Origin: Xanthostigma xanthostigma
Taxonomy: Eukaryota > Arthropoda > Insecta > Raphidioptera > Raphidiidae
Assembly (NCBI GenBank): GCA_963575645.1
Contig: OY754475.1
Coordinates: 15,228,509 to 15,292,508, forward strand
Length of the DNA: 64,000 bases
Reading direction: 5' to 3'
Part shown: positions 1 to 64,000 of the stretch, piece by piece
How positions within the stretch are numbered: the stretch's first letter is position 1
How the letters are laid out: the number at the start of each line of letters is the position of its first letter
Made by a program: the position numbers and the translations under genes
Notes under the pieces: generated by a model
Told to the model about the DNA's origin: nothing
Databases searched by the model: none
The model's input: the letters and a program-made list of their open reading frames with translations, nothing else

Positions 1-360
1 AACTAACAGTGATATTTTTTAGTAATAAGAACTATATTAGTAACACAATTTGATATAACGATGAACAAATAGTGCGTGTCGTGACACGGTCTACTCGCAA
101 ATGAAACAAATACACCCGCTGCGCTGCTACCGCACGCACCGTAATAAGACCTATACTGTAACCTGTACCAACATACCAACATATATTTTGACGAATTTTT
201 GGTGCTTCAGCGGAGAACGGTATTCGGCAAATCCACTATTCCACTAATAGGGTATATGCATGAATTTTTTTATATTTTTAATTCACTTTTTACATCATTA
301 TAACACCATAAAAAATATAAACACTCTTGGAAATGTTCAAATTAATTATTAAAATAAATT
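1..360. other. No recognisable feature
   Basis: AT-rich sequence with one more GC-rich patch near 75-150. I see no open frame, repeat or RNA gene that I can support. Confidence 0.5.
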
Positions 361-404
361 TTAAAACATCGATAAAATTCGACTTGTTTGAACGCTGCCA
401 TTTT

Positions 405-905
405 TCGCGAGCCTTGTGTTACGTCACATGGCACGTTCTGTCAGTTCAGTGTTTGTTACTATAGTTTTACAGTTATTTTATAACAATTTTCAGTTTTAAT
501 AGCCATTCAGACGATGGAAAAAGGTAAAAAACCATTTTATAGGTATTGCCTTGTACCAAAGTGCATAAATACTATTAGAAGTACACCCGATAAAATGTTT
601 TTTTCGGTTCCAAGAGATGCGAAAACACGAAAACTATGGTGTAAAGTAATGAGAAGAGATGGATTTGTGGCAAAATATTCTGTCATCATGAATGCATCTA
701 TTTTCGGTAGATTGTCCGATTGTGCTTTGACAAAACCACTTTCAATCATTGTCCTAGATGATTCCTAATTTCACCAAAACACTAAAATTGCACTAGCTAA
801 TTTAAAACACTACAGGAATACAAATAAAAACTATTTGTCACTCAAACACTATTAGCGACGCCGAGATCAGATGACGTGACGTGCCATGTGACGTCACGTT
901 TCGTT
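405..905 (+). mobile_element. Short element with imperfect inverted ends around a THAP head fragment
   Basis: A run reading GTTACGTCACATGGCACGT lies at about 418-436. Its near reverse complement, ACGTGCCATGTGACGTCACG, lies at about 879-898. They bracket the chimeric THAP fragment at 514-768. This looks like an internally deleted relic of a THAP-bearing element. I could not find a target duplication, so the ends are approximate. P-type elements also carry THAP domains, but nothing else ties this relic to them. Confidence 0.4.
514..768 (+). pseudogene. THAP zinc-finger head fragment fused to an inverted second fragment
   Basis: The 84-residue frame opens with a THAP-type (C2CH) DNA-binding head. 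It has C12-x4-C17, then TPDKMFFSVP, then RKLWCKVMRRDG (residues 24-52). This is the usual THAP order: first Cys pair, FxxP-like segment, and the conserved Trp of the helix. The second C-x2-H pair is missing because the THAP reading stops near residue 50. From about 658 to 750 the opposite strand instead reads GFVKAQSDNLPKIDAFMMTEYF, in two parts GFVKAQSDNLPKID and AFMMTEYF. This resembles the N-terminal segment of SWIM/YqaJ-type proteins that are repetitive in aphids (recalled, not searched). The frame is therefore a head-to-inverted-piece chimera and not a working gene. Upstream the sequence looks like a short leader; no intron signals were recognised. The THAP call is solid on motif; the second identity is weaker. 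Confidence 0.6.
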
Positions 906-979
906 TCCACCAATAGTGATGCGTTTCGCAAAATTGAATTTCCCTCGCTTATTTTGCACTTTTTAATTAATATTTTTTA

Positions 980-1887
980 CAATTAAAAGCGAACTAAATA
1001 GTAAAAAAATTGTTTAGGCATAATGTCCGGACAATAAAGCTTCTTGGAAAGAAAAATTATGTAAATTTAAACCACATGCATATTCCCTATTGTTATCTTC
1101 AAATCTTTGATTAACGTCTGAATAGAACTCTTCAAATAGGTAAATAAAATTGTCGACCAATTTTTGTCTGAAAAAAATTGGTCGATAATTTTATTTATTT
1201 GTTATCTTCAACTTCTATTCCAAAAAAAATTGAATTAAAAAAAATATTTTTGCACACTCCTCTATACAATAACTGATTTTCGTGTCTGTATTAAAGGCGA
1301 TTGTGAAATGATATATTTAACACTAGTGCCGTAAAACTGCGCAAAATAAAATGAACGTAGTCGTACTACTATTTCTATAGCAAATCACAGTACAATCGCA
1401 TGAGAATACAACGCAGCCTACAATTAGAAGTGAACGTGCTTAGAATTGAATTGTCAAAAAGTTTGAAAATTTAGTGAAAAACAATTATTTTATGACCTGT
1501 GTGACTGTCAAAACTCGTTGGTGTTCATTTTAGCATAGTGAAACACTTCGTCGTAAAATAATAATTCACGCACTAGATACATAACCTGCAATTTTGCACT
1601 ACACCTTATAAAATAGCTGTTTGACATGCATATATGCAGAAATAAGACCCAGTGCTGTAATGAAGAACAAAACGTTATACCAATTTTTTAGCAAATCAAA
1701 GTTTGTTTCTCTGTTGGTTTTTTATAATCTGCTATTAAAAGTGAAGTTTCCTCCAAAGTGAAACGTAAAAAGTTACGAAAATGAAGTGAAAACCAATTAT
1801 TTTATAGGAGACACGTGCAAGAAATAGCACAGATCTCAGGCTGATTATATTAGGTATTACTCGCGTGACTGTTAAACCTCGCTGGCA
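980..1887. repeat. Diverged dispersed repeats; no gene
   Basis: No coding signal. Three diverged blocks share the wording GTGACTGT(T/C)AAAACTCG at about 1500, 1865 and 3510. The blocks at 1440-1560 and 1740-1890 also share an upstream part reading GTGAAAAC(C/A)AATTATTTTAT. They are old copies of one repeat. Confidence 0.45.
1104..1200 (-). repeat. Penelope-type tail unit folded back on itself
   Basis: The stretch starts TTCAAATCTTTGATTAACG and continues to AATTGTCGACCAATTTTT. It then meets an inverted second copy, AAATTGGTCGATAATTTT, giving a hairpin at about 1141-1200. The same unit recurs at 15761, 18702, 47168 and, in part, at 27622 and 53055. At 15.8 and 18.8 kb it lies next to a hammerhead-like core, so I read it as the 3' tail of a Penelope-like family. 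Confidence 0.6.
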
Positions 1888-2090
1888 GTTATTCAGACAC
1901 CTATTACAAAATTATATTTCAACAGCCAGACAAATTGTAATGACCAAACATCCCCCCAGACGTAAAAAATAGTCAGCTGTTAGTATGAGCGCGAGAGCTT
2001 TATGACTATTTTTTACGTCTGGAGGAATGTTTGGTCATTACAATTTGTCTGGCTGTTGAAATATAATTTTGTAATAGGTGTCTGAATAAC
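1888..2090. mobile_element. Foldback MITE, 88 bp arms
   Basis: Positions 1888-1975 and 2003-2090 are near-perfect reverse complements around a 27 bp loop. The arms begin GTTATTCAGACACC and contain the segment AGCCAGACAAATTGTAATG. The element interrupts a diverged repeat copy (GTGACTGTTAAACCTCG just upstream). No coding capacity. A transcript would form one long hairpin. Confidence 0.9.
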
Positions 2091-4498
2091 ATTATATAAA
2101 AATCAAGCATTTAAAAATAAGTGAAGTTCATTAATTTTTCTCTGAGCTTTAAAGCGTCTGTCAGAAGTTGTGGTCAGCGGAAACTGACTGGCGATACTGG
2201 ATACTAATTTATAGTGATATTTTACAAAACATATATAAATATCAGCCATTTAAATTTAAATTAAGTGACTCTTATTTTTACTCACCTTTCTCACCTGGTA
2301 CCTGTACATTTGTCACTACTCAAAACGTAAGGTTTCATTTATTTAAAAATAGGTTGTGTCTGGCGGCTCTGGGATCTTACTTTATAATATTTTTGTGTGT
2401 TCAATTACAATGAATATATTGACAGAAGAACTATTGACATTAATCAAAAGTGTTTACTATTAATTATTATCATACAAATAGAAAGTTTCCCTTATAGCCC
2501 GAAAAACTACAAAATTAACGGCGGTAAAACTTTTGTAATATCTGTAAAAACTACAAAGCTATGCTAATTCAAAGTTTAAGTTTGTCTCTTCTTGGCAGAA
2601 TGTCGTTTTCAGTGCGTCACAAGTGTCATGCTTATAGTAACTAATAATATAGTAAGTCGTGAGGGCAGCAAACGATTAACAGTTGCATAGATACGAAAAG
2701 TAATGTAATGTCAATTAGGAAGTTTGACATAAAATATGAATATATCTTATATTCATGGCTTTCTATATTATTATTTACTATGGCTACTAATATGACATCT
2801 CAGATTGAAGATATCGAAAAAATTCTTTCAACATTTTTAAAACTATTGTTATTATTATTATTATTATATGGTACACTATCATAAAATAAATGCTTTTCAT
2901 ATCTGTATAGCGGTCGTCTTGCACCAGTGAGTAAAGAAAACAAAGGAAATGCGAAACGCACTATCGCTACCATTTCCACAGTAAAAGTATGAAATTCAAA
3001 CGCAGTCTATATTGGAAGTAAGCTTGTTCATTAAGTATTGAAATGTTAATTTTTTTAAGTTATGTGAAAATCAGCAATATGAAAGGGGCTGCGTGCAAAA
3101 AGTACACCATTTCTCAATTGCAGACAGCATTGTCTGAAAATCTGATTTGACAATTACCTTAGAATGTAAACGTACATATTTATCCATATAAAAAGCATTG
3201 TAGAATTTTCAATTGATCCTGGTTGAAACGTTTTTTGTACAGTTTTCACTTCGACACAACGTTTCAACGCATTTTGATCAAAATTTAGCTTGAAAAGTAT
3301 GTAAAACAATCATTTGTTTTTGTGTGAGTATAATCTAATGCTTTAGAATTTAGATGAGAGGGAGTTTGAATACTACATTAGACTCCTCCTGAAGTATAGA
3401 AACTGTAATTATATGGTCATAAGCTAAGGTCATTTTCAATTGTGATTTCTTGTCAACCCTTTCTGCAATCCAGCATATGTCTGTAATGCATGATAATATT
3501 ATAGCTCATGTGACTGTTAAAACTCGGCGTCACTCATTTTTAACATAATGTCACATTCGCCCTAGACACATAAGGCACTTTTAGTTTACATCTTTTTAGT
3601 CTGAATTTCGGGCAGACTACTCCATAATATTTGGCCGCTGCACACGAGGTTGGTTTTGCCGCTGGATTTCTTGCTAGATTTGGCTGTTGGGTTTCAAATA
3701 TGTGGTTTTTGTGTTTTTGCTTCACACGGTGCTTGTTTTGAAATTGTGTTTTGTAGATGAGTTTAGTCCGGGCGCAATGACAGTTCGAATATTAATGAAA
3801 GTGAACTTTTATTGTCTCTGAACGAAGCACACACTATATTTGTGTGTGTGCGTTTTCCCATGTCGCCTATGTCACAAGATACTGTTTCCTGATTGGTTCT
3901 TGCTCAAAACAAGCCCTGGTTTTAATTCTGAAATCCATCTTGTGGCCACGTACGCAATCTCGTAATGACGTCATGTCCATCTTCGCAATCAGCGCGCCAG
4001 CCACCTCAAGTCCTAGCAATGATTCCAGCTGTAAAGCCAGTCTCGTGTGCAGCGTCCCTTACTTTCGTCAGATACATTCAAATCACTCTTACTAAACAGG
4101 ATCACCAATAAAATTATTTGAAATCACCTGCAAATCACGAATACGGCACAGTTTGTTCTTGGAACACTTTGATGTGTAAATAAACACTGTGTTTTTCCAG
4201 ACCTCCGTGAATAGATGAGTCAAGTGTGTAGGCTTTTATAGCCGATGTTATTCCAAATCTTTTTTTGGTTTCCGGGCTTGTACACCATAGTTCCGTGGTA
4301 TTTCAAGCTGGCGTTTCGACTTTATCAAAAGCAGTGTGACACATCTCCTTTGAAAATGTCTACTGCAGTTGTAGACGGGACGTCAGAGATACCTATGGAC
4401 CACAGCCTACAAACCTGGAAACCAAGAAGATTTTGAATAGATGAGTCAGTGATAATATTAGAGCAGCCCAACGATGCATGTAAGACTTTTATGCTTTC
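2091..4498. other. No gene; microsatellite and old repeats
   Basis: I found no convincing coding sequence. There is a (TTA)n tract at about 2845-2867. A block at 3628-3700 reads CCGCTGCACACGAGG and resembles a block at 40105-40140 (TCGCTGTACACGAGACC, then a shared GCTAGATTTGGCTG). The remainder is low-complexity, AT-rich DNA. Confidence 0.5.
3628..3700. repeat. Dispersed repeat, copy 1
   Basis: It shares CGCTG-ACACGAG and GCTAGATTTGGCTG with 40105-40140. The wording resembles a DNA-transposon end, but no partner end was found close by. The short minus-strand frame over it (3540-3725) looks like chance. Confidence 0.4.
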
Positions 4499-6446: not shown

Positions 6447-6476
6447 TTAATTGAAAAAGGTTGTTCGTTTGTTTTA

Positions 6477-7446
6477 GTACAGTCAATCTGGCAAAAACCT
6501 CAACAAAACCAACCAAAAAGGTGAAACTTGGTGAGTCGTTAGAGAATGATGAAAAAAAGGTTACCTGGCAATGGCCACCTGGTACCTGTTCAAATACCTG
6601 TTCAAATAGTCAAAAAAAACTCAAAAATATTTTGAAATGCATTTTTCTCGAAAACTATCCATTTTACAGAAAAATTTATTGAACAAAAAATGTAGAGGGT
6701 ATCGTTATCTACAATTAATGTCATTGGTGCTATGTTGTACAACAAAAAATGTGCGCAGTAGGTGGCGCTTAAGTGCCAAAAAAAGTCTTTTTCCACTTTT
6801 TATTTTATACAACAAAAAATGTGCGCAGTAGGTGGCGCTAAAGTGCCAAAAAAAGTGTTTTTCCACTTTTTTGCCCTGAAATTTTCATTTTTCAGTTACG
6901 ATTCAAATGGAAAAATTGTTCCTTTTTATTTTATAAACAACTTTTATTTCAACATTTTTTTCATACAACTTACCGTTTCAGAGCTGCAGCTTGTTGAAGT
7001 GAAAATAAGTTGTATGAAAAGTAAGTTGTATGAAAAAAATGTTGAAATAAAAGTTGTTTATAAAATAAAAAGGAACAATTTTTCCATTTGAATCGTAACT
7101 GAAAAATGAAAATTTCAGGGCAAAAAAGTGGAAAAACACTTTTTTTGGCACTTTAGCGCCACCTACTGCGCACATTTTTTGTTGTACAACATAGCACCAA
7201 TGACATTAATTGTAGATAACGATGCCCTCTACATTTTTTGTTCAATAAATTTTTCTGTAAAATGGATAGTTTTCGAGAAAAATGCATTTCAAAATATTTT
7301 TGAGTTTTTTTTGACTATTTGAACAGGTACCAGGTGGCCATTGCCAGGTAACCTTTTTTTCATCATTCTCTAACGACTCACCAAGTTTCACCTTTTTGGG
7401 TGTTTTTGATACGAAATGATTTTTTTTTCGCCAGATTGATTGTACT
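6477..7446. mobile_element. Large foldback element, 426-497 bp arms
   Basis: The left arm (6477-6973) and right arm (7021-7446) are near-identical reverse complements with a 47 bp loop. The tips read AGTACAGTCAATCTGGC and GCCAGATTGATTGTACT. The left arm is longer because a piece of about 70 bp, containing GTGCGCAGTAGGTGGCGCT, occurs twice there (about 6734-6804 and 6805-6871) and once on the right. The loop holds a third copy of AAGTTGTATGAAAA. The short frames across the arms are mirror images of each other and are not genes. High arm identity implies recent formation or ongoing arm-to-arm conversion. Confidence 0.92.
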
Positions 7447-9530
7447 ATTTATCAGTTTTTCTGTTTGTAATAGTTCGTTTATATGTGAGCGCGATACAGG
7501 TTAAGAGTTAAAATTTTTGAAAACACTGAAATTGAAGTGAAAAGCAGCTATTTCACAGGAAGTGCGTGTAGTCGCGTCGGAACGAATTTTTTCATGGGTG
7601 GGCTCACGAAAAACAAGTTTAGGCATACATGAATTACAAGTTTACACTTTACTGAAAACTCGTTTTCTGTCTTCATATCTTTAAACGAACTCAAAACGCA
7701 GGAAATCATTAGGCTGCGCTCATATGCTGCCGCACTTATCTCTCTTTCAAATATGAAAGTTGATATAGAAATCATAAAAGTTAATATATATAAATTTTGA
7801 TGGGTGCAGGGCTTCTGTATTGATGAGCTTTTTGTAGACTTGTAATAAAGCAAAAAATAATCAATCTATTGCTTTTGTTAGATATTCCATGTGAGTATAG
7901 CTATACACTTTTTTACGGACACTTGTCAATATTATAAGTTCGTAAAATATTTGGAATATTTGACTGAACGGGAAGTTTACGACCCGAAATCATACAAACG
8001 GTACGTCTCAGATGCGAAACGAGTACTCACGCACACCTTCAAACTTGCAACGCATGTATATCGACACAAATACTATAATGGTTTCGATTCCCCCGTTCTC
8101 CTCTATATATGAAAATCATTGCGTGCGTCGTGTCGCCGTCTGATTGTAATTTGCCTTTAGCGTATAACAGCCTACGCCACTGTCCAAGTATCGATTCGGT
8201 TGATCTCGTGCCGCTAGCCGAAGTAAAAACACAGAGGGTTGTTTTCCCCGTTAGAAATGTTTAATGTAACATACGAACAGAAATCATGTAGATTGGTGCG
8301 TTTGTGTGTTGTGCTTTGAGTTGCGTACATTTTACTGAAATGGCAACTTCTGCGGGCGAAAATGAAAACGACGGTGGTGACGGTGGTGAAACAAATGAAC
8401 GCAAAACGTGAATATTACTATTTCAAATGTAAAAAAATATTATGTAGGGCTAAATATTTAATTAATAAAAACATCCAATGTAAACACTAGCACGAACTAA
8501 ACACTCTGTGTTATTTTAATAATATATGTCATATTAACATATTTAAATTCTTTTTTTTTTTTAATTTTTGGTGTGATTTTGAAGCTCAGTTCTAAAATAT
8601 CAAGCAGAAAATTAATTGTCTTCCATTTCTGCATAGTATTCAGATATATTTTCTCTGTTTCAAAATATGATTTTAGATAATATAATATTTAATTTTTACA
8701 CCAGGATGTTTAATCTGGTTGTACGTTTTTTAAATTGTATTAATAAATATAATAGAGTAGGTACTATTAATTCAGGGATTTTCAATCGCGTAATACGTAA
8801 AATTAAATTTAAATTTGAAAATGCAGTATGTTAAAAAACGTATTTCTGCAGTGGTTTCTATTTATAGCGCAATGTTATAATCGCTCTAACTCGATGACCT
8901 CTTTTTTAAATCAATTAAAAAATACTGGTGAAAGTTATAACGACCTATTTTTATATAGAGTGAAAAATTTCGAATCCATATTTGTCACAATATTATACGA
9001 TAATTTAATAAAAACTAAATATTACACAGAAGCAGTTAAAGCTTATTCACAAAATTAAATAAAAAAAAGGCAGTTGCTAATTATTATCCGGTGAAGTTAT
9101 TTAAAATAAAATCTCTTCTATTATCTCTAAAATAGCGACGCTAAGAAACAGGGTTATCTGGAGTGTTCTAAGCGAAATATAAATGTGATATTAAGAATAT
9201 TACGAATTGAATAAAAATAATAGGTGAGCACTATTGTTAGTTTCGTGTTATTTAGAGCATTAAAGTCTAAACGAAGACTTATTTATTATAATTTACAATG
9301 TATGTGTCCATATTGCGGTGAGTTATAGGAAAACCTAATTGCGGATATCTCTAACGTAATCACTTTACCGTAAAATAAAATTTTAACTATAATATACATT
9401 TATAAAAATATTATAACACAAAAAAAACATTAAATCAGTGAAGCGTGTGTAAATAGTTAAGAGTGAGTCACAAAGACAGTGCTGTTTACTTAATTTTGTA
9501 CATAATATGTTATTCATGATGTTTTATTGC
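7447..9530. other. No supported gene; one GC-richer leader-like patch
   Basis: Mostly AT-rich. The patch 8120-8412 is GC-richer and ends in a 23-codon frame, ATGGCAACTTCTGCGGGC to TGA (8340-8411), encoding MATSAGENENDGGDGGETNE and a few more residues. A weak donor-like AC|GTGAAT lies at its end. It could be a first exon, but there is no second exon to support it. The frames at 7891-8112 and 8828-9058 match nothing I know. Confidence 0.35.
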
Positions 9531-9790: not shown

Positions 9791-10039
9791 GTATGGACAC
9801 AAAATTCAATTTTAGTCTAATCACTTTGGATTATATTTTATACTATCAAACAGAACACTACTTAAATTCACATGAAATGCGGTTAATAGTGTAATTTTTA
9901 TAAACAGTTTTATTTTATTTGCAATATTTTATAACAATAATCTACCTAGGTTTTATCTGTAATTTTTTGTATGCATGTGTGTTTGAACGGATTTAACTAA
10001 AGAACTATTTAACGAATTTTAATGAAAATTAATATAATT

Positions 10040-10280
10040 TCTGTAAAAAATATAAAATAGACCAAACCAAAAAAAAAAAATATTTAATTAATTACGATCG
10101 TTTCGATTTAGATCAGGTCATCTTCAGATAGGAATGTAAATTGAAAATTGATATTTAACTAAAAAACTACACTTCGTGTTTATCGAAGTCAAATATCGAC
10201 GGATGATCTGATCTAGGTCAAAACGATCGTAATTAATTTAATAATTTTTTTTTTTGGATTTGGTCTATTTTATATTTTTG
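10040..10280. mobile_element. Foldback with hammerhead-like cores in both arms
   Basis: The arms run about 10040-10127 and 10195-10280, from TATAAAATAGACCAAA to TTTGGTCTATTTTATA. Read on the minus strand from 10127, the left arm gives CTGAAGA, a 16-base stem segment and GAAACG. The right arm gives GATGA...GGTC then AAAACG. The consensus helix, GACC paired with GGTC, is intact in form in the right arm (GATC/GGTC with a wobble). This fits the terminal regions of Penelope-like elements, which are known to carry hammerhead motifs. Confidence 0.65.
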
Positions 10281-10398
10281 GCAAAAATGTTTAATCCAAA
10301 CTATGAACTCACAATTGATAATATAATTTCATTAATTTTTTGGCATTTACTTCTATATAACTATCATATAAAAAAAATTCAGCCAATTGGGTGACGGG

Positions 10399-11095: not shown

Positions 11096-11365
11096 AAAAA
11101 CACTGTATTAGGTATTTTTGCATTTATAGTCGAACAAAGTAAACTCAAACAACTCTGGTACAAAATATAGGATTAATAGCGTACCAACCTGAATCGTTAC
11201 TTAATGAAAAAACTACTGTATTTCGAAAAATAGATTTTTCATTAATAATAATCAGACAAAGTAACGATTCAGGTTGGTACGCTATTAATCCCATATTTTG
11301 TACCAGAGTTGTTTGAATTTACTTTGTTCGACTATAAATGCAAAAATACCTAATGCAGTGTTTTT
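11096..11365. mobile_element. Foldback MITE, 107 bp arms
   Basis: Positions 11096-11202 and 11259-11365 are inverted copies, from AAAAACACTGTATTAGG to CCTAATGCAGTGTTTTT. The loop segment AACTACTGTATTTCG is itself repeated in inverse just outside the right arm (about 11366-11380), so the fold may extend further. No coding capacity. Confidence 0.9.
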
Positions 11366-11451
11366 CGAAATACAGTAGTTTATTTACAGATTATTTTACA
11401 GCATACTTGCATAGAAATAGTTGTCACTTTAGACTCTTAGAGTTTCATCTG

Positions 11452-12156
11452 GGAATGAAACGGAATAAGCTAAATATTTGTATAAACCTTTATTTTGGCA
11501 TTCTTCATGTTGTCTCAAAAGTCTCATAAGGTCACGTGTGAACATCCTTAGATATTCAAGGTCAAAGGTAGCGAAAAACAGTTTTTTGAAAATATGTCGC
11601 TTCCTTTGCCTCAAATCATATTTGCATTTACTATAAAAGTTATAGAGCATAGGATTCTCTATAAATTTTTTCTTAACCAATTTTTTATACATTTAACCGT
11701 TTCGAGATAGCCACACGCCATAGCGCAATGTGAATTGCGAATCCCAGTCCATATAAATATAAATATTATGTAATTATAAATATAAATATAGTGTATTAAA
11801 TAGTTAACTAACTAATAATAATTAAGTTAAAAAACCGTACCATGGACTGGGATTCGCGATTGACCTTGGCGTGTATGGATGTGCGCTTCACACTCTTCGC
11901 GCTTTCTCTCTCAAAAACGGTTAAAATTGTTAGAAACGAAATTTATAGAGAATTTTATACTCTACAACTATTATAATAAATGCAAATATGATTTGAAGCA
12001 AAGGAAGCGAGATATTTCCAAAAAAATTGATTTTCGAGACCCTTGACCTTGAATATCTAAGGACGCTCACGCGTGACCTTATGAAACTTTTGAGACAACA
12101 TTAAAAATGCCAAAATAAAGGTTTATACAAACATTCAGCTTATTCCGTTTCATTCC
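11452..12156. mobile_element. Foldback element, about 300 bp arms
   Basis: The left arm (11452-11752) and right arm (11842-12156) are inverted copies with clear but imperfect identity. The tips read GGAATGAAACGGAATAAGC and its complement, and the inner ends meet at ATCCCAGTCCAT and ATGGACTGGGAT. The 89 bp loop is almost pure A/T. The arms differ more than those at 6.5 kb, so this one is older. The frame at 11429-11692 is an arm shadow. Confidence 0.88.
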
Positions 12157-13185
12157 GAGGCTGTCCCTTTTTTTGGTTTATTTGACTGCACTAGAAAAAA
12201 TATCCATTTAAAAAAAATTATAACGGTCCGTATGTTTGTTTATAACTATATTTCTATAAAATGATTATTAACCATTACCAGCGCCGGATTTAATTTTATG
12301 GTGCTCTTGGTTTTTATAGTGAACGTTGCCCTAGTTTTTCTCTTTTTCTGTTTTGGTCTTCGCTTTTATTAACATCGTCTTCTTTTAATATGCTCATTTC
12401 ACTTTTAAAGTTCCACAATTTTTTTATAATATTTGATCCAGAAGAAATGTCATCTACAGTTGCATGAAGTAATCATAAATGCCTCAAGTCCTGTGCAAAT
12501 ATATAATTTGTAATCAGAAGTCTAATAACCAAAATAGTTCTAACAAGGAAAAACAATATTCTCGTTTTGTGGTATCCCCTCTGTGCTGGTGTCCTAGGCC
12601 GGTGTCTGGTGTGCCTTATTATTTATAAATCCATCACTAACAATTAATCATTAGATTAAATTCTAACGTAATTTAAGGCCCAAATCATTGTTAGTAATTG
12701 TGAGCAAGCAGCTGAATTTTGTTATGCACCTCGCAGGTCGCAGTCACTTCAAGGGCTCTTCTCAAAACGCATAGCGCTGTTGAAAGATATCTAAAAAAAT
12801 GTCCCCATTTATAGCATGTTCACCAAGCGAGACGTCAGAAATGTCGCTTTTAAATCTACTTAAATACTAGAGACACTACTATGAAATATTTAGTTTCTTG
12901 CATATTTAAATATTATACGAAATAACTTAATCTATGTATTAATTAAGTTAATTAGGTTTTCTTGTACGGCTATCTCCTCTTAAACTATTGACCCGATTTC
13001 AACGATCAGGGTGTCATTATTTTGATAGGACTCGATACACAGATGTGCAAAAGGGTGCCAGAATTGCGACAAGTGAACTTTAAGTTTCAAAAATCGCTTC
13101 TCAAAAAATTTATTCTAAACCGTTACAGAATATTAATAAGAAAAATCGCAGGTTTGTGGACAAAAGTTATATTTATCAATGTACT
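12157..13185. other. No supported gene
   Basis: AT-rich sequence. The frame at 13022-13246 overlaps the Penelope tail and is not convincing. Confidence 0.5.
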
Positions 13186-13413
13186 ACGTTTCGGCTATAA
13201 ATTTAGACTTTTTCAAGTACAATATAAAAATTATTTAAAACAATAATTATGAAAATAAACATTAATTACTAACGATAGCAATTAACAAAAGTTAAGGTAC
13301 CTACATAAGACAAAAACATGGCAACATGTATAAATTTTTAAACAATAAAAATTAAAATTAAAATTAAAAATTCGAAAGTTAGTTCAATTTCATAATATAG
13401 TTGTACTGACTTT
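13140..13413 (-). mobile_element. Penelope-like element, 3' tail
   Basis: Read on the minus strand after the coding part, the tail passes through CTTGAAAAAGTCTAAAT, then GCCGAAACGTAG (13222-13186), then TTGTCCACAAACCTGCG and ATTTTTCTTATT. The same word order, in plus orientation, is found at 18560-18660. The GAAACG step after a CTGAAGA-like run resembles a worn hammerhead core. Confidence 0.6.
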
Positions 13414-14112
13414 TTAAATTTTGAGTGTCTGTTCTATAATTAATAGAATTGATTTTTTTCTAATAAAACACATTTCACTGATATTACGTTTCTTCCAATT
13501 TGACTCTTTATCTAATATTTTAACTTCATTAAATAGAAATTTATGTCCAGTGTCGAAATGTCGAGATGACAACGCGGTCTTATTATCACTTAATAAATTT
13601 ATGTTTCTACAGTCTATTCTGTGTTGGTAAATTCTCTGTTTTAGTAACTGTCTTGTTTGCCTCACATAACACTTACTACATTCACAAGGTATTTTATAAA
13701 TGATGTTAGATTGGTGTAAAATAAGTGTTTTATCTTTAAGACTTGTGAATAATCTGTTTAATTTATTTAAGTTATAAAACACCAACTTGATATTTGTGTT
13801 AGAAAATAATCTGTTGATCTTGTATGACAAGTTCTTGACGAATGGAAATCTAACATACATCTTAGTAGACTTAGTTCTTTCAGCCACAGTATCCAACGTG
13901 TTATTCAGGTGATTTTGGTCCTCTACGAGTATAAACTTATTGATGCATTGATGTATAAAGTTGACAGGGTAATTATTAGCTTTTAAGATATTTTCAACTT
14001 TCTTAAAATTGTCATTATGGTAATCTTGGTGACTTAATCTTGTTACTCTGTGTAACAAGCTTTTTATAACACTAATTTTCTGCTGTACTGAATGGTTTAA
14101 GCGATAATTCAA
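13414..14112 (-). CDS. Penelope-like element C-terminal fragment with GIY-YIG endonuclease
   Basis: Penelope-like retroelements encode a reverse transcriptase fused to a C-terminal GIY-YIG nuclease that nicks target DNA. This 232-residue frame holds the region after the RT (about residues 1-125) and the nuclease (about 130-220). Visible landmarks are NIIYKIPCECSKCYV, with the first Tyr at 139 and Cys 143, 145 and 148; RQTRQLLKQRIYQHR with the catalytic-type Arg near 160; HFDTGH with His 185 and 190; and KILDKES. The Cys/His set matches the CCHH feature described for this clade. The second GIY-YIG block reads YVRQT where YIGQT or YVGQT is usual, so a normally invariant Gly is Arg. No RT catalytic motif is present upstream, so the copy is 5'-truncated, as is typical. 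The first Met is arbitrary. Probably inactive. Confidence 0.8.
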   Translation of the reverse strand: MNYRLNHSVQQKISVIKSLLHRVTRLSHQDYHNDNFKKVENILKANNYPVNFIHQCINKFILVEDQNHLNNTLDTVAERTKSTKMYVRFPFVKNLSYKINRLFSNTNIKLVFYNLNKLNRLFTSLKDKTLILHQSNIIYKIPCECSKCYVRQTRQLLKQRIYQHRIDCRNINLLSDNKTALSSRHFDTGHKFLFNEVKILDKESNWKKRNISEMCFIRKKSILLIIEQTLKI

Positions 14113-14130
14113 AAGCCTGCCTCCTAAGTT

Positions 14131-14211
14131 ATGTCGTAAAAATTACTTTTCCTTAGCTACGCAGCAAAATTCAATACTTTAGTAGCTAAAGAAAAGTAAT
14201 TTGTACGACAT
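14131..14211. repeat. 30 bp inverted repeat (hairpin)
   Basis: ATGTCGTAAAAATTAC (14131 on) and GTAATTTGTACGACAT (ending 14211) are the ends of two 30 bp arms around a 21 bp loop. It ends exactly where the LTR-like repeat starts (14212), so it may be the target sequence or a small MITE beside it. Confidence 0.75.
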
Positions 14212-14506
14212 TGTTACGAATTTTAATTTTCAGTCATTAATATTCAGTGGATAATTTTTACTTGTCTCTTGATGTACCAACTACATCAAGTTTGAACAGT
14301 ATAAAAGTGCTACGCATCTTATTAGTTTATTATAAATTTGCTCTCGGCCTAATGAGATTTTTATAAGAACGGCTTTCCGCGACTTGATGTCGCATGAGTA
14401 TTTTGTTTAATTAAGAATTTTTATTTTATTAATTTTGACGGACGCATTATGTGCGGCACGTATATTATATAGGATGAGTTTTGCATTTCGACGGCCCTAT
14501 CACACA
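14212..14506 (+). repeat. LTR-like repeat G, copy 1
   Basis: It starts TGTTACGAATTTTAA and ends about CACACAC. It contains a core-promoter-like AGTATAAAAGTGCTACGC at about 14300. Parts recur at 34903-35025 and 37665-37965. The TG...CA form and TATA box suggest a solo LTR about 295 bp long. No internal retroelement sequence adjoins it. It is a fossil and its family is not identified. Confidence 0.5.
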
Positions 14507-15760
14507 CCCCTGTAAGGGTCGCAAGGCGTCCAGAAAACAGTCATTTAGAAATAGCTGGAAAACAACTAGTTTTAGGCCGAAAATGTTCATTATCAATCTG
14601 AAAGTCAATTAAACTTCGAACAGAATTACGTACTTAATATTATGCTCTTTAAAAAAATTTAAATTCGTAGTATTTTTGTGAAACAAATACTAGTCATGCT
14701 TTTTGTGACAAAACAACATCAAAATAGGTCAATCAATCTAAGTTGAGTATTACAGTTTTTCGAAACGCATAATTCTAATTAGATACCGAATTTAAAAAAA
14801 TCCACACCAAATCAAATGACCTAAACGATGCTTTTATATTTATTTTTACAAAAAATACTAATAATTCACATATAAATTGATTTATTCAAACGATTGCAAG
14901 TCTTTCACCATTGGTCAAATTACTGTTAGATGTGATTTTTTTGGTGCAGGACACTTTAATCAGGAAAAAATCGATAGGGTCAGCTCTGCATATTATATTT
15001 TATGTTATCTCACAAAGGAAAGACCCAGCTTTTGAAACCGCCGTACGTCTAACTATAACGTATTTAAAAAAAAAGTTGCATACATAAATTTCGAGCTTTG
15101 AGCAACAGGACCACTAGTTGATATTTAAAGATATAACCAAAGAATGAGACATATTTCACATCGTTTGTCTATTGTCAACATTGCGTTGAGGATATACCTT
15201 CCAATTCTGAAGGCAGATGCTTACGGTGAACGGTCGTTTCAAGGCTGACAGGCATAAAACTTAGCATCGATGTATTTTAGGCCTGTCATTTCTGTCTATT
15301 AATAAAAAGAATTTATGACGGACGATGACGTTCCGAGATATAATTTACTGGTTTGCAATTACTTAAAGTCGTAAAGCTTATATCTGTAGAGCGTTAAATA
15401 ATTTCATCAAAGTATGAATTTATTTTTAACAATGATAAATATTAATTATTAATAATCAATATGATTAAATTCCTATACTTTTCTCACTAAAATAATGAAA
15501 AAATAATAATTGATTTTGTTTAGTAGATTATTTAGTTCACAATAAGACTGAGACACAAAAATTGATACGGAAAGCTTTATCAATATAATCAATATAATAA
15601 TTATTCTAAAATAGATTACTGATTACTAATAAAGCTAAATCTGAAAAATTAGTCGTAAATTTTATTTATTTACATATTTTATAATAAGAAATATCAATTT
15701 GTGGTTTTACTGACACACCGCTTCAAGTTATAAACAGTACTAATTGATCTTGTAATAAAT
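14507..15760. other. No supported gene
   Basis: AT-rich sequence with no coding, repeat or RNA signal that I can support. Confidence 0.5.
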
Positions 15761-15880
15761 AAAATTATCAACCAAGTTTTTCAGACTGTAGGTATATTGA
15801 CAAAAAATTATAAAATCATAATTCAATATCTCAATAAATGACATTTCGGTCCAGATTTGGAACTTCTTCAGAAATATGTA
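15761..15880 (-). repeat. Penelope-type tail with hammerhead-like core
   Basis: Read on the minus strand from about 15872, it gives CTGAAGA, AGTTCCAAATCTGGACC, GAAATG. In the middle part GTTC can pair with GGAC. The tail words AATAAAATTATCAACC and TTTTTCAGAC follow. This is the same order as at 18.7-18.9 kb. Confidence 0.55.
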
Positions 15881-15949
15881 ATCTAAAAAATATAAAAATG
15901 AATTAGTATTTACTTATTTTACAATAGAATTAAGATTGAATATACCGGC

Positions 15950-16240
15950 CAGTGCTAATGACGTCATGAATCCGACGCCATAATTGTACTGGTATGCCAC
16001 TATATTCTACTGGTGAGACAGATGTGACGTAGCATAAATATTTAACCAGACGTGTGTTCATCCGACTTTGTGAATTTCTTTATTTTATTATTTGTTATTT
16101 GCAATAATGTCTGATTAACAATGTAAACAATTACTTTTGGTAAACGAAGGAAATAATAATACGTCAGCGCGCTAGCCAGTAAATTTCGGAACGAATCAAC
16201 AGTACGCGCGCGGCGTTGATTCATGACGTCATTAACACTG
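15950..16240. mobile_element. MITE with CRE-bearing terminal inverted repeats
   Basis: The ends read CAGTGCTAATGACGTCATG and CATGACGTCATTAACACTG. They match over 23 bp with one difference, and each holds the palindrome TGACGTCA. The 291 bp body has no coding capacity. I found no clear target duplication, so the superfamily is open. Confidence 0.8.
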
Positions 16241-16286
16241 ATCAGTATACTGGGTTATATTTCGTAACACACCCATTGTATTTCGA

Positions 16287-16403
16287 AATAGTATTATATT
16301 ACACCACAAGGGCCGAAAGTGTGATATTCGTCATGATGCCTGAGGGCATCATAAAGCACAGGGCAAGGTATCACACCTTCGGCCTGTGTGGTGTATACTA
16401 TTT
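16287..16403. repeat. Branched hairpin, about 117 nt
   Basis: The outer arms 16300-16326 and 16369-16395 pair almost fully (TACACCACAAGGGCC with GGCCTGTGTGGTGTA). The pairing extends outward through AATAGTA and TACTATT. Inside is a separate perfect hairpin, TGATGCC-TGAG-GGCATCA (16334-16351). The result is a long stem with a side hairpin. It may be a structured RNA or the remnant of a hairpin-ended element. Confidence 0.75.
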
Positions 16404-16830
16404 TTCTTCATACCTCGGTCGTAAGCACGCTTATTAAATACATTAATTAATTACATAAAAACACAGCAAGCTTTGAGTTTATACGTAAAAACATAAATGA
16501 CAATTGTTCGCGATTATTAGCAAAAATGTAATAAGTTTGCTATGGAAACGACATCTTAACAACAGTTAATTGGTTGTTTTTGCTTTACGACCGCCGAACT
16601 TCCTGGATTGTAGCGTGTAATGCCACCAAGGAGTAAATGTTAGACTTTCTGCCTTACAATTGGTACCGAAAGTATACACTTTCGATCGAGATATGAAGAA
16701 AACTTGTTTGCATTCATTCGTGATCATTCGTTTTCGTTTGTGCTCGCTTGAGTACCTAGACCCACCTTAACGTTATTTTAGAATCCTTCGAACGTAGCAA
16801 ACTACCGACCTATAATTTTATCTCAACTAT
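16404..16830. other. No supported gene
   Basis: No repeat or coding signal recognised. A GC-richer patch lies near 16590-16640. Confidence 0.4.
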
Positions 16831-16832
16831 AC

Positions 16833-17171
16833 ATGGTGTATCACAGAAAACCGTACATAGGAAAAAGTACAAAGTACAAATTAGTTAAGATCAGAGATCG
16901 CTTTGCCGTCTGTTCAAAGGTCGTTACCATGGTTTACTCTTTACATAATGAAATCTATTCGGGATGGTGGCACAATCTGGATGAACAAGACAAAATCGCC
17001 GAAGTATGTTTCAATGTGACTCCTGTAACGTTAGACAAAGTGAAAAAAAGTTTTTATAACCGATTAAGTTACTGCTTAATCAAAATGAATGTTTATTTGA
17101 ACATTTGCTATAATTTTGATTTTAACTGTTTGTTTGGTTTAATTATTAATATAAGAAAATTTTCTAAATAA
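16833..17171 (+). pseudogene. Possible transposase C-terminal tail
   Basis: This 112-residue frame is not clearly recognised. Its middle part (about residues 32-85) reads KVVTMVYSLHNEIYSG, then KIAEVCFNVTPVTLDKV and KKSFYNRLSYCL. That pattern (VVY...P, a short helix, aC..VTPe.L..V...f..Rl..Cl) resembles the C-terminal tail of many Tc1/mariner-type transposases. The usual final NGxHFE is absent because the reading turns into AT-rich sequence at about residue 88. No D,D,D/E catalytic motifs are present and no inverted ends were found. It could instead be a chance frame. Confidence 0.35.
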
Positions 17172-17309
17172 AAAAATGTTTTATTAATAAAAATAAATTT
17201 ATTTAATACTGAAGAATTAATTTTAACTGACTATTCATTATTAGTAATTATCCCTATATTATTAAACGAGCTAATCTTGTATCTACCTATCTATATACCT
17301 ATGTCCCTA

Positions 17310-17648: not shown

Positions 17649-17669
17649 AAGATGACGGCGAATCAGATT

Positions 17670-25352: not shown

Positions 25353-25362
25353 AGGTGTGAGA

Positions 25363-48067: not shown

Positions 48068-48468
48068 AAAAACAAAATTAAAAATTTTGAAAAAACCCAC
48101 GACGAATGTAAATGTTGTAAATGAAAAAAAAAATAAATAAAATTCTGAAATCCCCCGACTTAACGCTGGTAAATAGTAACCAAAGAAAATCCGTCGAGGG
48201 CTGCCATTCGCTGCCCTAAATTAAGAATAGAAAAATATGAATTAGACTACAGTTATTTACGTACCAAACGTGATTTCAATCAGCCACATACTCTAAAATT
48301 GCAATATTTTCGATCATTTCAGGGCAGCGAATGGCAACCCCCGGACGGATTTTCTTTGGCCAATTACCTGCGGTTAAGTCAGGGGATTTCAGGATTTTAT
48401 TTAATACTTTTTCTATTACAACATTTACATTCATCGTGGATCATTTCAAAATTTTTAATTTTGTTTTA
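48068..48468. mobile_element. Foldback element, about 150 bp arms
   Basis: The arms 48068-48217 and 48321-48468 are inverted copies; inner ends read GCCATTCGCTGCCCT and AGGGCAGCGAATGGC. Identity is moderate to high, and the loop is about 100 bp. The frame at 48299-48538 lies over the right arm. Confidence 0.9.
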
Positions 48469-49146: not shown

Positions 49147-49693
49147 TAGTGATGTGCCGGATCGTTTAAAATGTATATCCGCGGATACGGATCTGAATAC
49201 GGATTTTTGGTTTCAAGATCCGCGGATACGAGTACGGATACGGATCTTTACTTTCTTAGAGTATGCGGTGGTAAATATTGCACATCGACCTTTGGAAAGA
49301 GACTATCTGTTATGGGAAAAAGTTATTGACCTCTTTAAGAGTTAACTCTCATAACAGATTGTCTCTTTCCAAAGATCGATGTGAAATATCTCATTATAAA
49401 GATAGTTTTTTAGTACCTTTGAGTTATGTACTATTGGTATGGTACTCACTGCGATAAATGTTTGCAATATAAAGGTGCCAAATACGATTTTAAAAAAATA
49501 AAAAATAATCTGAATGGAATTTAACAGTTTTTCATTATTACCTTATCACCTATATATGTAAAATTTCATCTATGAATTAAAAATTAATAAGGTAAAATAT
49601 CCGTAAAAGATCCGCACAAAAACTAACGGATATGGATCTTTCTTCTCCCTCGGATATCCGCGGATGCGGATACGGATATCCGGCACATCACTA
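49147..49693. mobile_element. hAT-type non-autonomous element
   Basis: The inverted ends TAGTGATGTGCCGGAT and ATCCGGCACATCACTA are flanked on both sides by the same 8 bp, GTACAGAC (49139-49146 and 49694-49701). An 8 bp duplication is the hAT hallmark. Many copies of ATCCGCGGAT/ACGGAT words follow inside each end, as in transposase-binding subterminal repeats. A long inner hairpin (CTTTGGAAAGAGAC near 49290 with its complement near 49370) occupies the left third. 547 bp, with no transposase. The exact duplication suggests a fairly young copy. Confidence 0.92.
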
Positions 49694-57769: not shown

Positions 57770-59618
57770 GCAACCCTTAGGGTCATTTTGAATCTTAATT
57801 AGTAAGAATGTCGTTATAGTTTCTACCTAACAGAAAACGGAAAAATAATTCGCAAATGGCGACTGTGAAAAAAAAACATTTTTCGACCTTTTTTTTCATA
57901 ATTGTTAATTTTTAAATATCGTCAAAAACATAATTTTGACACAAAAATAGTAGGGGCGATAGAAAATTGTATATTGAAAATTGGTATGAAATTTGAAATA
58001 AATCGGATATCATGTCAACCATGTTGAAAAAAGTAGTTTTGAGAAAAACGCGCTTAAAGCTTTGAGCAGAGTTTTGGTCTAAGTTATAGAATGCTATTGA
58101 GCTGAACTGAACACAGAACAGGAAAAGGTTTTTAAAAGAATGTATAATTATCCAAAGAAAGGTCATGTAGTCGGGCATTGTTTATCGTCTATTATTGTTA
58201 CGGACTTAGTTGCTGCATCAGTAAAATAGCTATAACTTCGTAAATCATTAGAATTTTAAAATTTTCTCTCAAGGATATATTCTAAAAGGGTTAAACTTTA
58301 AGAATATACAAATAAAAAAATGATTTCTTCAAAATTCTAGATCAGAATACCCACTTAATTGTAAAATTTATGAGATCTGAAATGAACAAAACAAAATAAA
58401 TGTGAAAAAAAGACAAACTTTTCTTGAAATGTACTAAAACGGAAAGAAATATATTTTTTTAACTTGGGTTTTTAAGTGTCGGTCAGTCTAATGAACTTTT
58501 CTTAGAGTACACAAATAATTATGAACATAAATTATTTAACTTTTTTTTTTCCTTTTTAGTACATTTCAATAAAAATTTGTCTTTAAGAAGTAATTTTCTT
58601 TACATTTTGCCGTCCTCCGCAATATTATTCTTTCCTTGTGAACTACTCAGTATAGATATGCTTTTTGTGCCAAAAATGCATTTCCTATAAGTCATAACAT
58701 AACTACCAGTTTCAAAATTACAAAACAAGACAAGCTTTAAAAATATGTACTGACAGTGTTTGTCGCTTATATAAGTTATCTTTTGTGGGTCACAATATAT
58801 CCGGTATTTTGTCAGTTTTTCACCGCTTATTCCGTTTTCTCTGGCTTCTCTTTCTTTTCGGTCCAGCCTTGCTGTTAAAGTTCAGGTGAATAAAGTAAAC
58901 AATAAATAAAACACATGTGTTCCGCAAGCCATGCTGTAAGTTTGAATAGTTTAACAATAATTCTTACTAGATTTTCCTTTGAATTGTTTAAAATCGTTGG
59001 CGAAGCCAAAAGTGCACCTCCTGTTAAGTTTACCACAGTTATGATCAAGAGACATTTTTACCCAAATTTTTTATTTTAAAATTTAAACTACTGAACATAT
59101 TCTTAAGAATTAAAATAGGGTTGTATTGTGATAGTAAATAAAGCGAATGAAATAAAATTTGAGTTTAAAAAAACTAAAACAACACGTTTTTATGAAATAA
59201 GAAATGTAAAATAATTGGACAAAAAAATTAGCTTCAATATAAAATAGCGTGAGACGTTTGATATCAGTAGTCCTAAATTTTTCATTACTAGCTATTTGTA
59301 AAAGTAGAGCCATTATGAACATTTAAGTAGTGAGCATCCCATGTTTTTTTTGTATTAAAGCTAATTTTTTTCCAAATTATTTTACATTTTTGAGTCCATA
59401 AAGACGTGTTGTTTTATTTAGTTTTACCTGTCCCGGTATCTGTCTGTTGGTCTTAAATCACATCTCGCAAGTTAAATTTGACCCATTTCTTGGTTTCCGA
59501 TTGAGCCGTTTTGTATACGTATATGTAGTTCCAAAGACAATACAATATTATAATAACTAACTGTCCGGTTCGGCTATCGTCCAGATGTATATCGCACATT
59601 TAATAAGGCACACTAAAA
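57770..59618. other. Gene-poor stretch
   Basis: No supported coding or repeat feature in 1.85 kb. The frames at 57912-58178 and 59110-59322 have no motif. Confidence 0.45.
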
Positions 59619-62507: not shown

Positions 62508-62560
62508 TATTGGTAGCTTAGTGGTAAAATGCCGGCCTGGGTTCGATTACCGTCAGGTGC
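62508..62560 (+). tRNA. Truncated tRNA-like sequence
   Basis: An A box TAGCTTAGTGG (62514-62524) and a B box GGTTCGATTAC (62540-62550) are only 15 bp apart, so the anticodon arm is missing. A T-rich run follows at 62573. It is a relic and cannot be a working tRNA. The minus frame at 62432-62695 merely reads through it. Confidence 0.5.
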
Positions 62561-62644
62561 GCGCAACAATTTGTATTTTTTTACTATTTTTAAGTACGTA
62601 TACCTATTATATATGTCGTAGGTATATTGCAAAATTAGGCTTTT

Positions 62645-62850
62645 TACAAAATGTCTAGGGAGTTTATAAAATGCCGGCAAAACGCGAGCGATCAAGGCAG
62701 TTTTCGTTATGACTATACCAATTCAGGCAAATTTATAAAATGCCGACAAAACGTGAGCAGAAGAACGTGCATCTCGTTCTGACGCATTATTTTCAGGCAT
62801 TTTACAATTTGCCAACAGCGATGTAGTCAAGATGTGAGCGGGAGAACAAA
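62645..62850. repeat. Short diverged repeats
   Basis: TTTATAAAATGCCGGCAAAACG and TTTATAAAATGCCGACAAAACG recur about 66 bp apart (62664 and 62730), each followed by GAGC words. Only about two copies. Confidence 0.55.
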
Positions 62851-62967
62851 TTAACAAAATTAGGTGGATAGGCACTAGGTACAATGACACAAGAAACAAT
62901 ACACTTCTTTATTACATAAATCTAAATAAACATTGTGGTTGTATTTCTATTATTCTTAGTTTAAAAT

Positions 62968-63073
62968 GGCATTGTTAAAAGAGAAAAACTTTTAACAATG
63001 CCAAAAAGCGGAATAAAATGCATGGCTCTTTTACCGTAAACAGAAAGAGCCATGCATTTTATTCTGCTTTTTT
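62968..63073. repeat. Two adjacent near-perfect hairpins
   Basis: The first is GGCATTGTTAAAAG, a 7-base loop, and the complement (62968-63002). The second has arms 63003-63031 and 63044-63073 (AATAAAATGCATGGCTC with its complement), one mismatch and a 12-base loop. The second has the size of a miRNA precursor. Confidence 0.88.
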
Positions 63074-64000
63074 CGTTGTCGTCCAATCAAATCCCTTTAC
63101 TGCGTAAATTGTTACAGAACGTAAAATTTCTGAAACATGGGTGTTGTTCACCATAAATATTGTATGAATGTATACAACTGGTACCATTACAATATTTCAT
63201 ACAGTGCAGTGTAGAGGAACCACTTTCAATGCTAGCATTAAATATTCAGAATATTAGCTTCGCAAATCAGAATACATGAATTTTTCAGTAGATTTTAATT
63301 TCTGTGGGAAACCTGTTTGCCTCTTGCAACTGAAAAGTGTTTATTAGTCGGTTCTAACTGCACTGCACCGAAATAATGTTCCAATTTCGACTTACATTCG
63401 TAAATAAATTATTTTGAAATATACTTTTCGTATGAAATCGGCAGAAAAACTGTGAAATAGGTATTATAATGGCGTATCATAATATTATTAGATTATTTTT
63501 TACATCTTTCGATAAAAATGTAAATGGAATAAACTAGATGCACGCCGCGCGGTTCAATTTTATTTGGCTACTTTATAAACATGAAGTTTTTGTTTGCGAC
63601 TTATTATTTATTATTGAGCTTCCTATAATATCCTCAAAAACATGTACGATATAAACTTTAAATTCATAAATGAGTGCAAACTGATTTTTGTTTTTTTATT
63701 TCGTAGAAGTCAAGTTGAAACATGACATAAAAACTCTGTGTAATCAGTTTTATAAAATAAACTTAATTATTATGAAAAAAAAATATATTAAAAATACTCT
63801 GTTTTTCACGCATCTGACTGCATCTCACCCCTTAACTGACTTTTTTTCGTAGATGAATTTGGAGAAAGAAGGAGAAAATCTGTCAATATTTCGTGGATTG
63901 GCATCGAAAAATTCACATCTTAAAAAAAAATACTCAAAACAATTGAGTGACAAAAGTGTTTTTCGGGGGGTTAAAAATCGCCATGCACACCTAGGCTCGA
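63074..64000. other. No supported gene
   Basis: No repeat or coding signal that I can support up to the window end. Confidence 0.45.

What the first reader, a model, noticed from the sequence alone, without database searches (positions are those of the whole stretch)
1..64000. Unusual density of inverted duplications
I count about 20 separate foldbacks in 64 kb, with arms from about 20 bp to about 1.2 kb. They come from at least a dozen unrelated sequences, and several are nearly perfect (31161, 43965, 35071, 6477). Different sequences arriving at the same architecture suggests a process that makes inverted duplicates, such as template switching at a fork or hairpin-tipped transposition intermediates. 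One foldback family alone would not explain it. Transcripts would be long dsRNA, a natural input to Dicer-2.
Basis: partly seen in the sequence, partly recalled or inferred. Interest (0 to 1): 0.72.

Follow-up and report, generated by a model that had tools for sequence, protein, structure and literature searches.

The report
Transposon foldbacks, ordinary for this genome
The many hairpin-forming inverted repeats in this stretch are real, but most involve jumping-DNA families scattered over the genome, their density is not clearly above the rest of the genome, and only two look as if they were made on the spot by a copying error.

Summary
The foldbacks are real: 42 inverted pairs (E<=1e-3, spacing <6 kb) merging into 25 clusters, against 0 or 1 pair in each of 20 shuffles. 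Their density is not clearly unusual for this 623-Mb genome: 3.83 clusters per 10 kb against 3.25 (sd 1.94) in 20 control stretches of 10 kb (Mann-Whitney p=0.40); arm coverage is at the upper edge (19.6% against 11.7%, p=0.051). At least 17 of 25 clusters contain dispersed repeats: 11 by genome search, 6 more by matches in the 200-kb control sample. In five families the ends of copies at other sites lie beside TA, as expected of non-autonomous Tc1/mariner-type elements. The clearest test: in the 6475 family the left arm matches the same arm at four other sites at 98.5-99.1% but its own partner at 91.1%, so that inversion arose once and then moved; two other families do not decide. Six clusters are undetermined. 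Dicer-2 processing could not be tested.

The parts
1888..2388 (.). One-sided truncated copy of an ~880-bp near-perfect palindromic element (central palindrome 1888-2090)
   Evidence: 480 first-look candidates, 40 scored, 95-98%; copies L063 and L064 are longer palindromes, the window lacks the outer part of the left arm
6475..7447 (.). Non-autonomous foldback element, ends GTACARTCAATCTGGC beside TA
   Evidence: 719 candidates, 40 scored, full-length matches end within a few bases of the foldback ends; TA beside both ends in 4 of 4 loci; own arms 91.1%, same arm in copies 98.5-99.1%
10037..10288 (.). Old foldback (75% arms), origin undetermined
   Evidence: 0 of 20 control stretches; not searched genome-wide
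11096..11365 (.). Locus-specific foldback: 107-bp arms, 97% identical, 56-nt loop; loop piece 11210-11230 is the exact reverse complement of the right junction 11361-11381
   Evidence: no other copy detected: 18 of 18 candidates scored, the others are matches of 31-41 bp
11437..12193 (.). Foldback element, ends near TAGTSCAGTCA (palindrome 11449-12159)
   Evidence: 472 candidates, 40 scored, 79-86%; TA at 6 of 8 ends of four copies
13131..19000 (.). Mosaic of old inverted repeat pieces (13131/18548, 15747/18841, 14131-14211, 18736-18993)
   Evidence: 18736-18993 matches 6 of 20 control stretches, 14131-14211 partly 1 of 20
22976..23652 (.). Foldback element, ends CAGCGTGTCCACG beside TA
   Evidence: 2163 candidates, 40 scored, 95-97%, most end at query 94 and 770; TA at both ends of 4 of 4 copies
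24627..27025 (.). Inverted arms enclosing a minus-strand piece with a DUF4817 helix-turn-helix (25363-25860)
   Evidence: arms match in 5 of 20 control stretches
28446..28971 (.). Old foldback element (73% arms)
   Evidence: one other nearly full-length copy, 79%, both orientations, among 40 scored of 3894 candidates of a joined query
29373..30266 (.). Foldback element, ends CAGGGTGAGTCAGACC beside TA
   Evidence: 1486 candidates, 40 scored, 87-89%, most end near query 100 and 993; TA at both ends in 3 of 3 loci
31161..31293 (.). Local hairpin: left arm 31161-31205 is the exact reverse complement of 31249-31293, which lies in one copy of a dispersed repeat (31205-31375)
34665..34736 (.). Short foldback, undetermined
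   Evidence: not resolved, which was filled by another family
35034..37656 (.). Long foldback element with ~1.2-kb arms and ~187-bp internal tandem repeats, ends GCCCGGTCATA / GGCCAGTCATA beside TA; near-identical copies suggest recent activity
   Evidence: 603 candidates, 40 arm matches scored at 99-100%; 12 +/- pairs visible, window included, 1743-1751 bp apart; ends; tandem repeats
40326..40569 (.). Old foldback, dispersed
   Evidence: both halves match 1 of 20 control stretches at 84-86%
40839..46455 (.). Nested block: a ~490-bp dispersed repeat in two inverted copies (40839-40919 + 43465-43869, and 46007-46455)
   Evidence: 199 candidates, 40 scored for the left copy; unsplit unit in 4 of 4 loci
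40919..43465 (-). Short LTR-retrotransposon remnant inside the left copy: ~155-170-bp direct repeats (91%), GTAGG on both sides, aspartyl protease piece
43956..44926 (.). hAT-like foldback with 37-bp tandem repeats in its loop, 8-bp direct repeat TAATATTT on both sides
44999..45905 (.). Foldback with 97% arms in the same block; copy number not tested genome-wide
   Evidence: 0 of 20 control stretches
48069..48467 (.). Foldback element, dispersed
   Evidence: 37 other copies among the 40 scored candidates, 83-90%
49275..49389 (.). Short dispersed palindrome
   Evidence: full length at 92-98% in 3 of 20 control stretches
59150..59419 (.). Old foldback element (palindrome 59172-59419)
   Evidence: 2033 candidates, 40 scored
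59412..59945 (.). One-sided truncated copy of a ~1.07-kb palindromic element (palindrome 59625-59939)
   Evidence: 913 candidates, 40 scored, 79-82%; longer copy L065
60623..62013 (.). Inverted ends TATACAGAATGTTCAAAAAGTCC with an inner foldback 61187-61580
   Evidence: edges; inner part matches 2 of 20 control stretches

Best explanation
Most of the foldbacks are inserted copies of many different non-autonomous DNA transposon families (MITEs and longer foldback elements), at least five of them with TA beside their ends as in the Tc1/mariner type and one hAT-like. Their terminal inverted repeats extend inward over much of the element. At least in the best tested family the inverted duplication was made once in an ancestor; a transposase supplied in trans then moves the unit by binding the ends and integrating at TA. 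Old copies decay, in two cases by loss of part of one arm, and new elements land inside old ones, which builds nested blocks. A minority (one well supported, one plausible, six clusters untested) may be made in place by short-range template switching. Shown: dispersal, shared ends, TA flanks, nesting. Inferred: trans-mobilisation, superfamily labels, and that untested families behave like the tested ones.
For: Genome-wide matches for 11 of 25 clusters and matches in the control sample for 6 more. Most full-length matches stop near the foldback ends although the queries carried at least 100 bp of flank on each side. TA beside the ends in the families 6475 (4 of 4 loci), 29373 (3 of 3), 22976 (4 of 4 copies), 35034 (4 of 5 left ends and 2 of 2 right ends seen) and 11437 (6 of 8 ends). 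In the 6475 family same-arm identity across sites (98.5-99.1%) exceeds that of partner arms (91.1%) in 4 of 4 loci. The two arms of the 35034 element lie 1743-1751 bp apart in 12 visible pairs, window included. An LTR element with GTAGG on both sides splits one arm unit at 40919-43465. No open frame of 130 aa or more lies in the 6475, 11437, 22976, 29373 or 35034 elements.
Against: No autonomous partner was sought or found for any family; superfamily labels rest on TA or 8-bp flanks and on end motifs recalled from general knowledge. First-look candidate numbers (199 to 2520 for single-family queries) are unscored beyond 40 per query. Six of 25 clusters are undetermined (10037, 30916, 34665, 50168, 58409, 63003), and the nested 44999-45905 was not tested genome-wide. 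The arm comparison does not decide for 29373 (the opposite arm elsewhere matches as well as the same arm) or 35034, and in the 59625 family the window's arms (87%) are more alike than copies are (79-82%), which fits homogenisation between arms or a local origin as well. One 35034 left end (L006) reads TT in place of TA and one locus (L005) did not show the end where expected. At 43465-46383 the arms are two inverted copies of a repeat that also occurs singly. Arm coverage in the window is at the upper edge (p=0.051).
Confidence: 0.88

Rival explanations
1. A process such as template switching at replication forks makes inverted duplicates in place, from whatever sequence is there, and accounts for most of the foldbacks.
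For: 31161-31293: the left arm is an exact 45-bp reverse complement of part of the window's own repeat copy and carries its private changes (two extra A, one C to A, 14-bp deletion), with the 12-bp direct repeat ATTTTACCCTTA at both ends of the new arm. 11096-11365: no other copy in the genome search, 107-bp arms at 97%, and a 21-bp loop piece reverse complementary to the right junction.
Against: At least 17 of 25 clusters contain dispersed repeats, and several families have the whole foldback at many other sites; in the 6475 family the inversion is older than the spread. Only one case, with 45-bp arms, has direct support.
Confidence: 0.08
2. The foldbacks are assembly artefacts (joined strands, chimeric reads).
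For: None found; the two locus-specific foldbacks could in principle be such artefacts.
Against: The same foldbacks occur at dozens of scored places on different contigs; arms carry differences shared between copies.
Confidence: 0.02
3. The foldbacks are kept as sources of hairpin RNA for the siRNA pathway.
For: Strong predicted pairing, for example 11080-11380 folds with z = -25.5 as single-stranded DNA. Rfam microRNA families match only below their gathering scores.
Against: Pairing follows from any inverted repeat; several copies are degraded, truncated or nested, as expected without selection.
Confidence: 0.03

Closest known systems
Insect MITEs of the Tc1/mariner type (iMITEdb, PMC5199201; passages seen)
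   Same: Inverted ends, TA beside the ends, many copies, no long open frame; the paper names TC1-Mariner the largest MITE superfamily in 98 insect genomes
   Different: Several elements here are longer than the 800-bp limit used in that paper (894, ~970, ~2620 bp), and the arms fill most of the element
Foldback elements (long, partly repetitive inverted ends; recalled)
   Same: 35034-37656 has ~1.2-kb arms with internal ~187-bp tandem repeats
   Different: TA beside the ends, not the 9-bp duplication recalled for Drosophila FB
hAT-type MITEs (recalled)
   Same: 43956-44926 has an 8-bp direct repeat on both sides and an end reading CAGGTCCTCAAACTTGG
   Different: Only one copy's ends were examined; the left end lacks the first C
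Short-range template switch mutations (PMC8794818, abstract and start of introduction seen; PMC7954356, listing only)
   Same: 31161-31293: a reverse-complement copy of a neighbouring stretch with short homologies at the switch points, making a perfect hairpin stem
   Different: No sequence of the same site in a relative; the ancestral state is inferred from other copies of the repeat

Membership tests
Tc1/mariner-type non-autonomous element (6475, 22976, 29373, 35034, 11437 families) | TA target duplication | tested here: met
   TA beside both ends in 6475 (4 of 4 loci), 29373 (3 of 3), 22976 (4 of 4 copies); 35034: 4 of 5 left ends and 2 of 2 right ends seen, window included; 11437: 6 of 8 ends of four copies. 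Empty sites were not available, so duplication as such is inferred
Tc1/mariner-type non-autonomous element (6475, 22976, 29373, 35034, 11437 families) | Fixed ends with terminal inverted repeats at many unrelated sites | tested here: met
Tc1/mariner-type non-autonomous element (6475, 22976, 29373, 35034, 11437 families) | No transposase gene of its own | tested here: met
   no open frame >=130 aa inside the window copies of these five elements; shorter exons not excluded
Tc1/mariner-type non-autonomous element (6475, 22976, 29373, 35034, 11437 families) | Autonomous relative with the same ends and a DDE transposase | not tested
MITE in the sense of iMITEdb | Length under 800 bp | tested here: inconclusive
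   met by 22976 (677 bp) and 11437 (757 bp); not met by 6475 (~970), 29373 (894), 35034 (~2620)
hAT-type element (43956-44926) | 8-bp target duplication | tested here: inconclusive
   TAATATTT on both sides of one copy; no second copy examined
Template switch mutation (31161-31293) | New arm is a reverse-complement copy of neighbouring local sequence, with its private variants | tested here: met
   private changes against three fetched copies shared by both arms; 38 of 39 other scored copies are at least 10 bp longer (net) than the window copy over the matched stretch, one is 4 bp longer
Template switch mutation (31161-31293) | Ancestral state without the arm at the same site in a relative | not testable with these tools
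   no relatives of G000 held
Template switch mutation (11096-11365) | Single locus, no dispersed copies | tested here: met
   18 of 18 candidates scored, none but the window copy over 41 bp; the tool warns that it skips very common words
Dicer-2 hairpin RNA locus | 21-22-nt small RNAs from both arms | not testable with these tools
   no small RNA data

The most novel reading that the evidence does not exclude
Beside the transposon foldbacks, this genome also gains hairpins by replication template switching, up to 107-bp arms in a single-copy place (11096-11365, possibly by several switches in series, given the reordered 21-bp piece in its loop), so that new long-stem hairpin loci arise from unique DNA without a transposon.
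Probability: 0.2. Interest if true: 0.4.

Novelty: new member of a known kind. Interest (0 to 1): 0.2.

Why it matters
It shows that a striking density of hairpins in raw sequence can be an ordinary load of foldback transposons, and gives a simple test (same arm across sites against partner arms within a site) to tell inherited from locally made inversions. The two locus-specific hairpins are good cases for studying how long hairpins arise.

Tried and rejected
Chance was rejected by shuffles. A hotspot in this window was not supported by 20 control stretches. Matches of control foldbacks to each other: 29 of 65 control clusters and 7 of 25 window clusters have an arm matched in another stretch, a lower bound given the small sample. 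Rfam: of 14 matches with E<=0.5 only one, a tRNA-like match at 52255-52327, reaches its gathering score. Pfam on window frames gave DUF4817, an aspartyl protease just above its cut-off, SCAN under its cut-off, THAP, and CSF-1 under its cut-off, which I take as chance; four of the nine submissions (one frame given twice) had no match. The reading of 43465-46383 as one foldback transposon was dropped because the arm unit stands alone within 1.5 kb in 4 of 4 loci; a larger element with this unit as its ends is not excluded, since one other inverted pair about 2.3 kb apart is on the list (C12:17014662 and 17017309). The joined query of six foldbacks was filled by one family, so 34665, 50168, 58409 and 63003 stay open.
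Full report
The window is G000:C12:15228509-15292508 of a 623-Mb assembly in 28 contigs.

Observation. A self-comparison on the minus strand finds 42 inverted pairs with E<=1e-3 and spacing under 6 kb, which merge into 25 clusters, 18 of at least 100 bits, with arms over 20% of the window. Shuffles give 0 pairs (16 of 20) or 1 pair (4 of 20). The foldbacks are therefore real. One control stretch has no foldback at all and one has 45% arm coverage. Mann-Whitney p values are 0.37 (pairs), 0.40 (clusters), 0.08 (strong clusters) and 0.051 (coverage). The window is within, at most at the upper edge of, the usual spread.

What they are. Queries of a foldback with at least 100 bp of flank on each side were searched against the whole genome. 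For 6475-7447 (719 candidates, 40 scored), 29373-30266 (1486), 22983-23651 (2163) and 11449-12159 (472) most full-length matches at other sites stop at, or within about 35 bp of, the foldback ends. An arm piece of 35064-37626 has 603 candidates, and 40 arm matches were scored at 99-100%; 12 visible pairs, window included, have the arms 1743-1751 bp apart. The foldbacks 48069-48467 (37 other copies among 40 scored candidates), 59172-59419 (2033 candidates), 59625-59939 (913) and 1888-2090 (480) are dispersed too; 28446-28971 has one other scored copy; the arm unit of 43465-46383 is a dispersed repeat (199). Candidate numbers are first-look counts and unscored beyond 40. Six more clusters have parts matched in the control sample: 1141 (5 of 20 stretches), the 13131-19000 mosaic (6 of 20 for its part 18736-18993), 24627-27025 (5), 40326 (1), 49275 (3) and 60623-62013 (2). 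That makes 17 of 25 clusters with dispersed material. Two are discussed below as local. Six are undetermined: 10037, 30916, 34665, 50168, 58409, 63003.

Ends. Flanks of copies at other sites show TA beside the ends in the families 6475 (both ends, 4 of 4 loci), 29373 (3 of 3), 22976 (4 of 4 copies), 35034 (4 of 5 left ends and 2 of 2 right ends seen, window included; in L005 the end was not found where expected) and 11437 (6 of 8 ends of four copies). Ends such as CAGGGTGAGTCAGACC and CAGCGTGTCCACG resemble mariner-type ends (recalled). No frame of 130 aa or more lies in the window copies of these five elements. They are best read as non-autonomous Tc1/mariner-type elements. According to passages of PMC5199201, TC1-Mariner is the largest MITE superfamily in 98 insect genomes.

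Was the inversion made at each site or inherited? In the 6475 family the left arm of the window copy matches the corresponding arm at four other sites at 98.5-99.1%, the opposite arm there at 91.1-91.4%, and its own partner at 91.1%. The inversion is older than the spread of these copies. For 29373 the same arm elsewhere gives 88.3-88.7%, the opposite arm elsewhere 87.3-90.2% over shorter stretches, and the own partner 85.6%: no decision. For 35034 it is 99.3-99.8% against 99.3%: no decision. For 59625 the partner arms (87%) are closer than copies (79-82%), which runs the other way and may reflect homogenisation between arms. What these families do share is that the whole foldback, not one arm, recurs at other sites.

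Nested and truncated copies. At 40839-46455 a dispersed repeat of about 490 bp lies in two inverted copies. The left one is split by an LTR-retrotransposon remnant (40919-43465) with 5-bp GTAGG on both sides; four other loci carry the unsplit unit. Between the two copies sit two more foldbacks, of which 43956-44926 has an 8-bp direct repeat TAATATTT on both sides; the other, 44999-45905, was not tested genome-wide. The elements at 1888 and 59412 are copies of longer palindromes (about 880 and 1070 bp in L063-L065) that have lost the outer part of one arm.

Foldbacks that look made in place. At 31161-31293 the left arm is the exact reverse complement of 31249-31293 over 45 bp. The right arm belongs to a dispersed repeat; the 39 other scored copies match the window in the forward sense only from about 31205 (31196 to 31211) onward, and match the left arm only on the other strand, where they meet its source. 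Compared with three fetched copies, the window's right arm has two extra A, one C to A change and a 14-bp deletion, and 38 of 39 other scored copies are at least 10 bp longer there, net. The left arm carries the same changes, so it was copied from this very place. The 12-bp direct repeat ATTTTACCCTTA at 31154-31165 and 31196-31207 gives homology for leaving and rejoining the template. This is what a short-range template switch would produce; [quoted passage not shown] At 11096-11365 a search of 445 bases found no other copy; 18 of 18 candidates were scored, and the others are matches of 31-41 bp. The arms differ at 3 of 107 positions, and the loop holds a 21-bp reverse complement of the right junction. 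A serial template switch is plausible; a transposon with a single surviving copy is not excluded, and the search tool skips very common words.

Verdict. The finding is real in its observation, not clearly unusual in its density, and mostly explained by known kinds of transposable elements. The template-switch interpretation is supported for one short foldback and may hold for another. The small RNA proposal could not be tested.

Noticed in passing
53990-55467: Array of ~120-bp satellite units (about 11 copies, GTGACGTCACTC...ATGGCGGAC), followed at 55524-55598 by the same 37-bp unit that fills the loop of the hAT-like foldback at 44414-44561.
   Followed up: no
17745-18036: Two 137-bp tandem units rich in short G+C-rich palindromes, in an A+T-rich window.
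   Followed up: no
13417-14142: 242-aa minus-strand frame that looks to me like the end of a Penelope-like element (recalled resemblance); Pfam gave no match.
   Followed up: partly
484-765: 94-aa frame with a THAP domain, E 1.4e-5.
   Followed up: no
25125-25860: Minus-strand frames, one with DUF4817 (E 3.2e-13), inside the inverted arms 24627-27025; possibly a broken transposase. The second frame had no Pfam match.
   Followed up: partly
52255-52327: tRNA-like match above Rfam's gathering score (38.2 bits); tRNA gene or tRNA-derived repeat.
   Followed up: no
35710-36979: ~187-bp tandem repeats inside the long arms of the 35034 element; related units occur in control stretch L027.
   Followed up: no
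50168-50210: 20-bp perfect hairpin arms GTGCTCACGTAGAGGGCT with a short loop, origin unknown.
   Followed up: no
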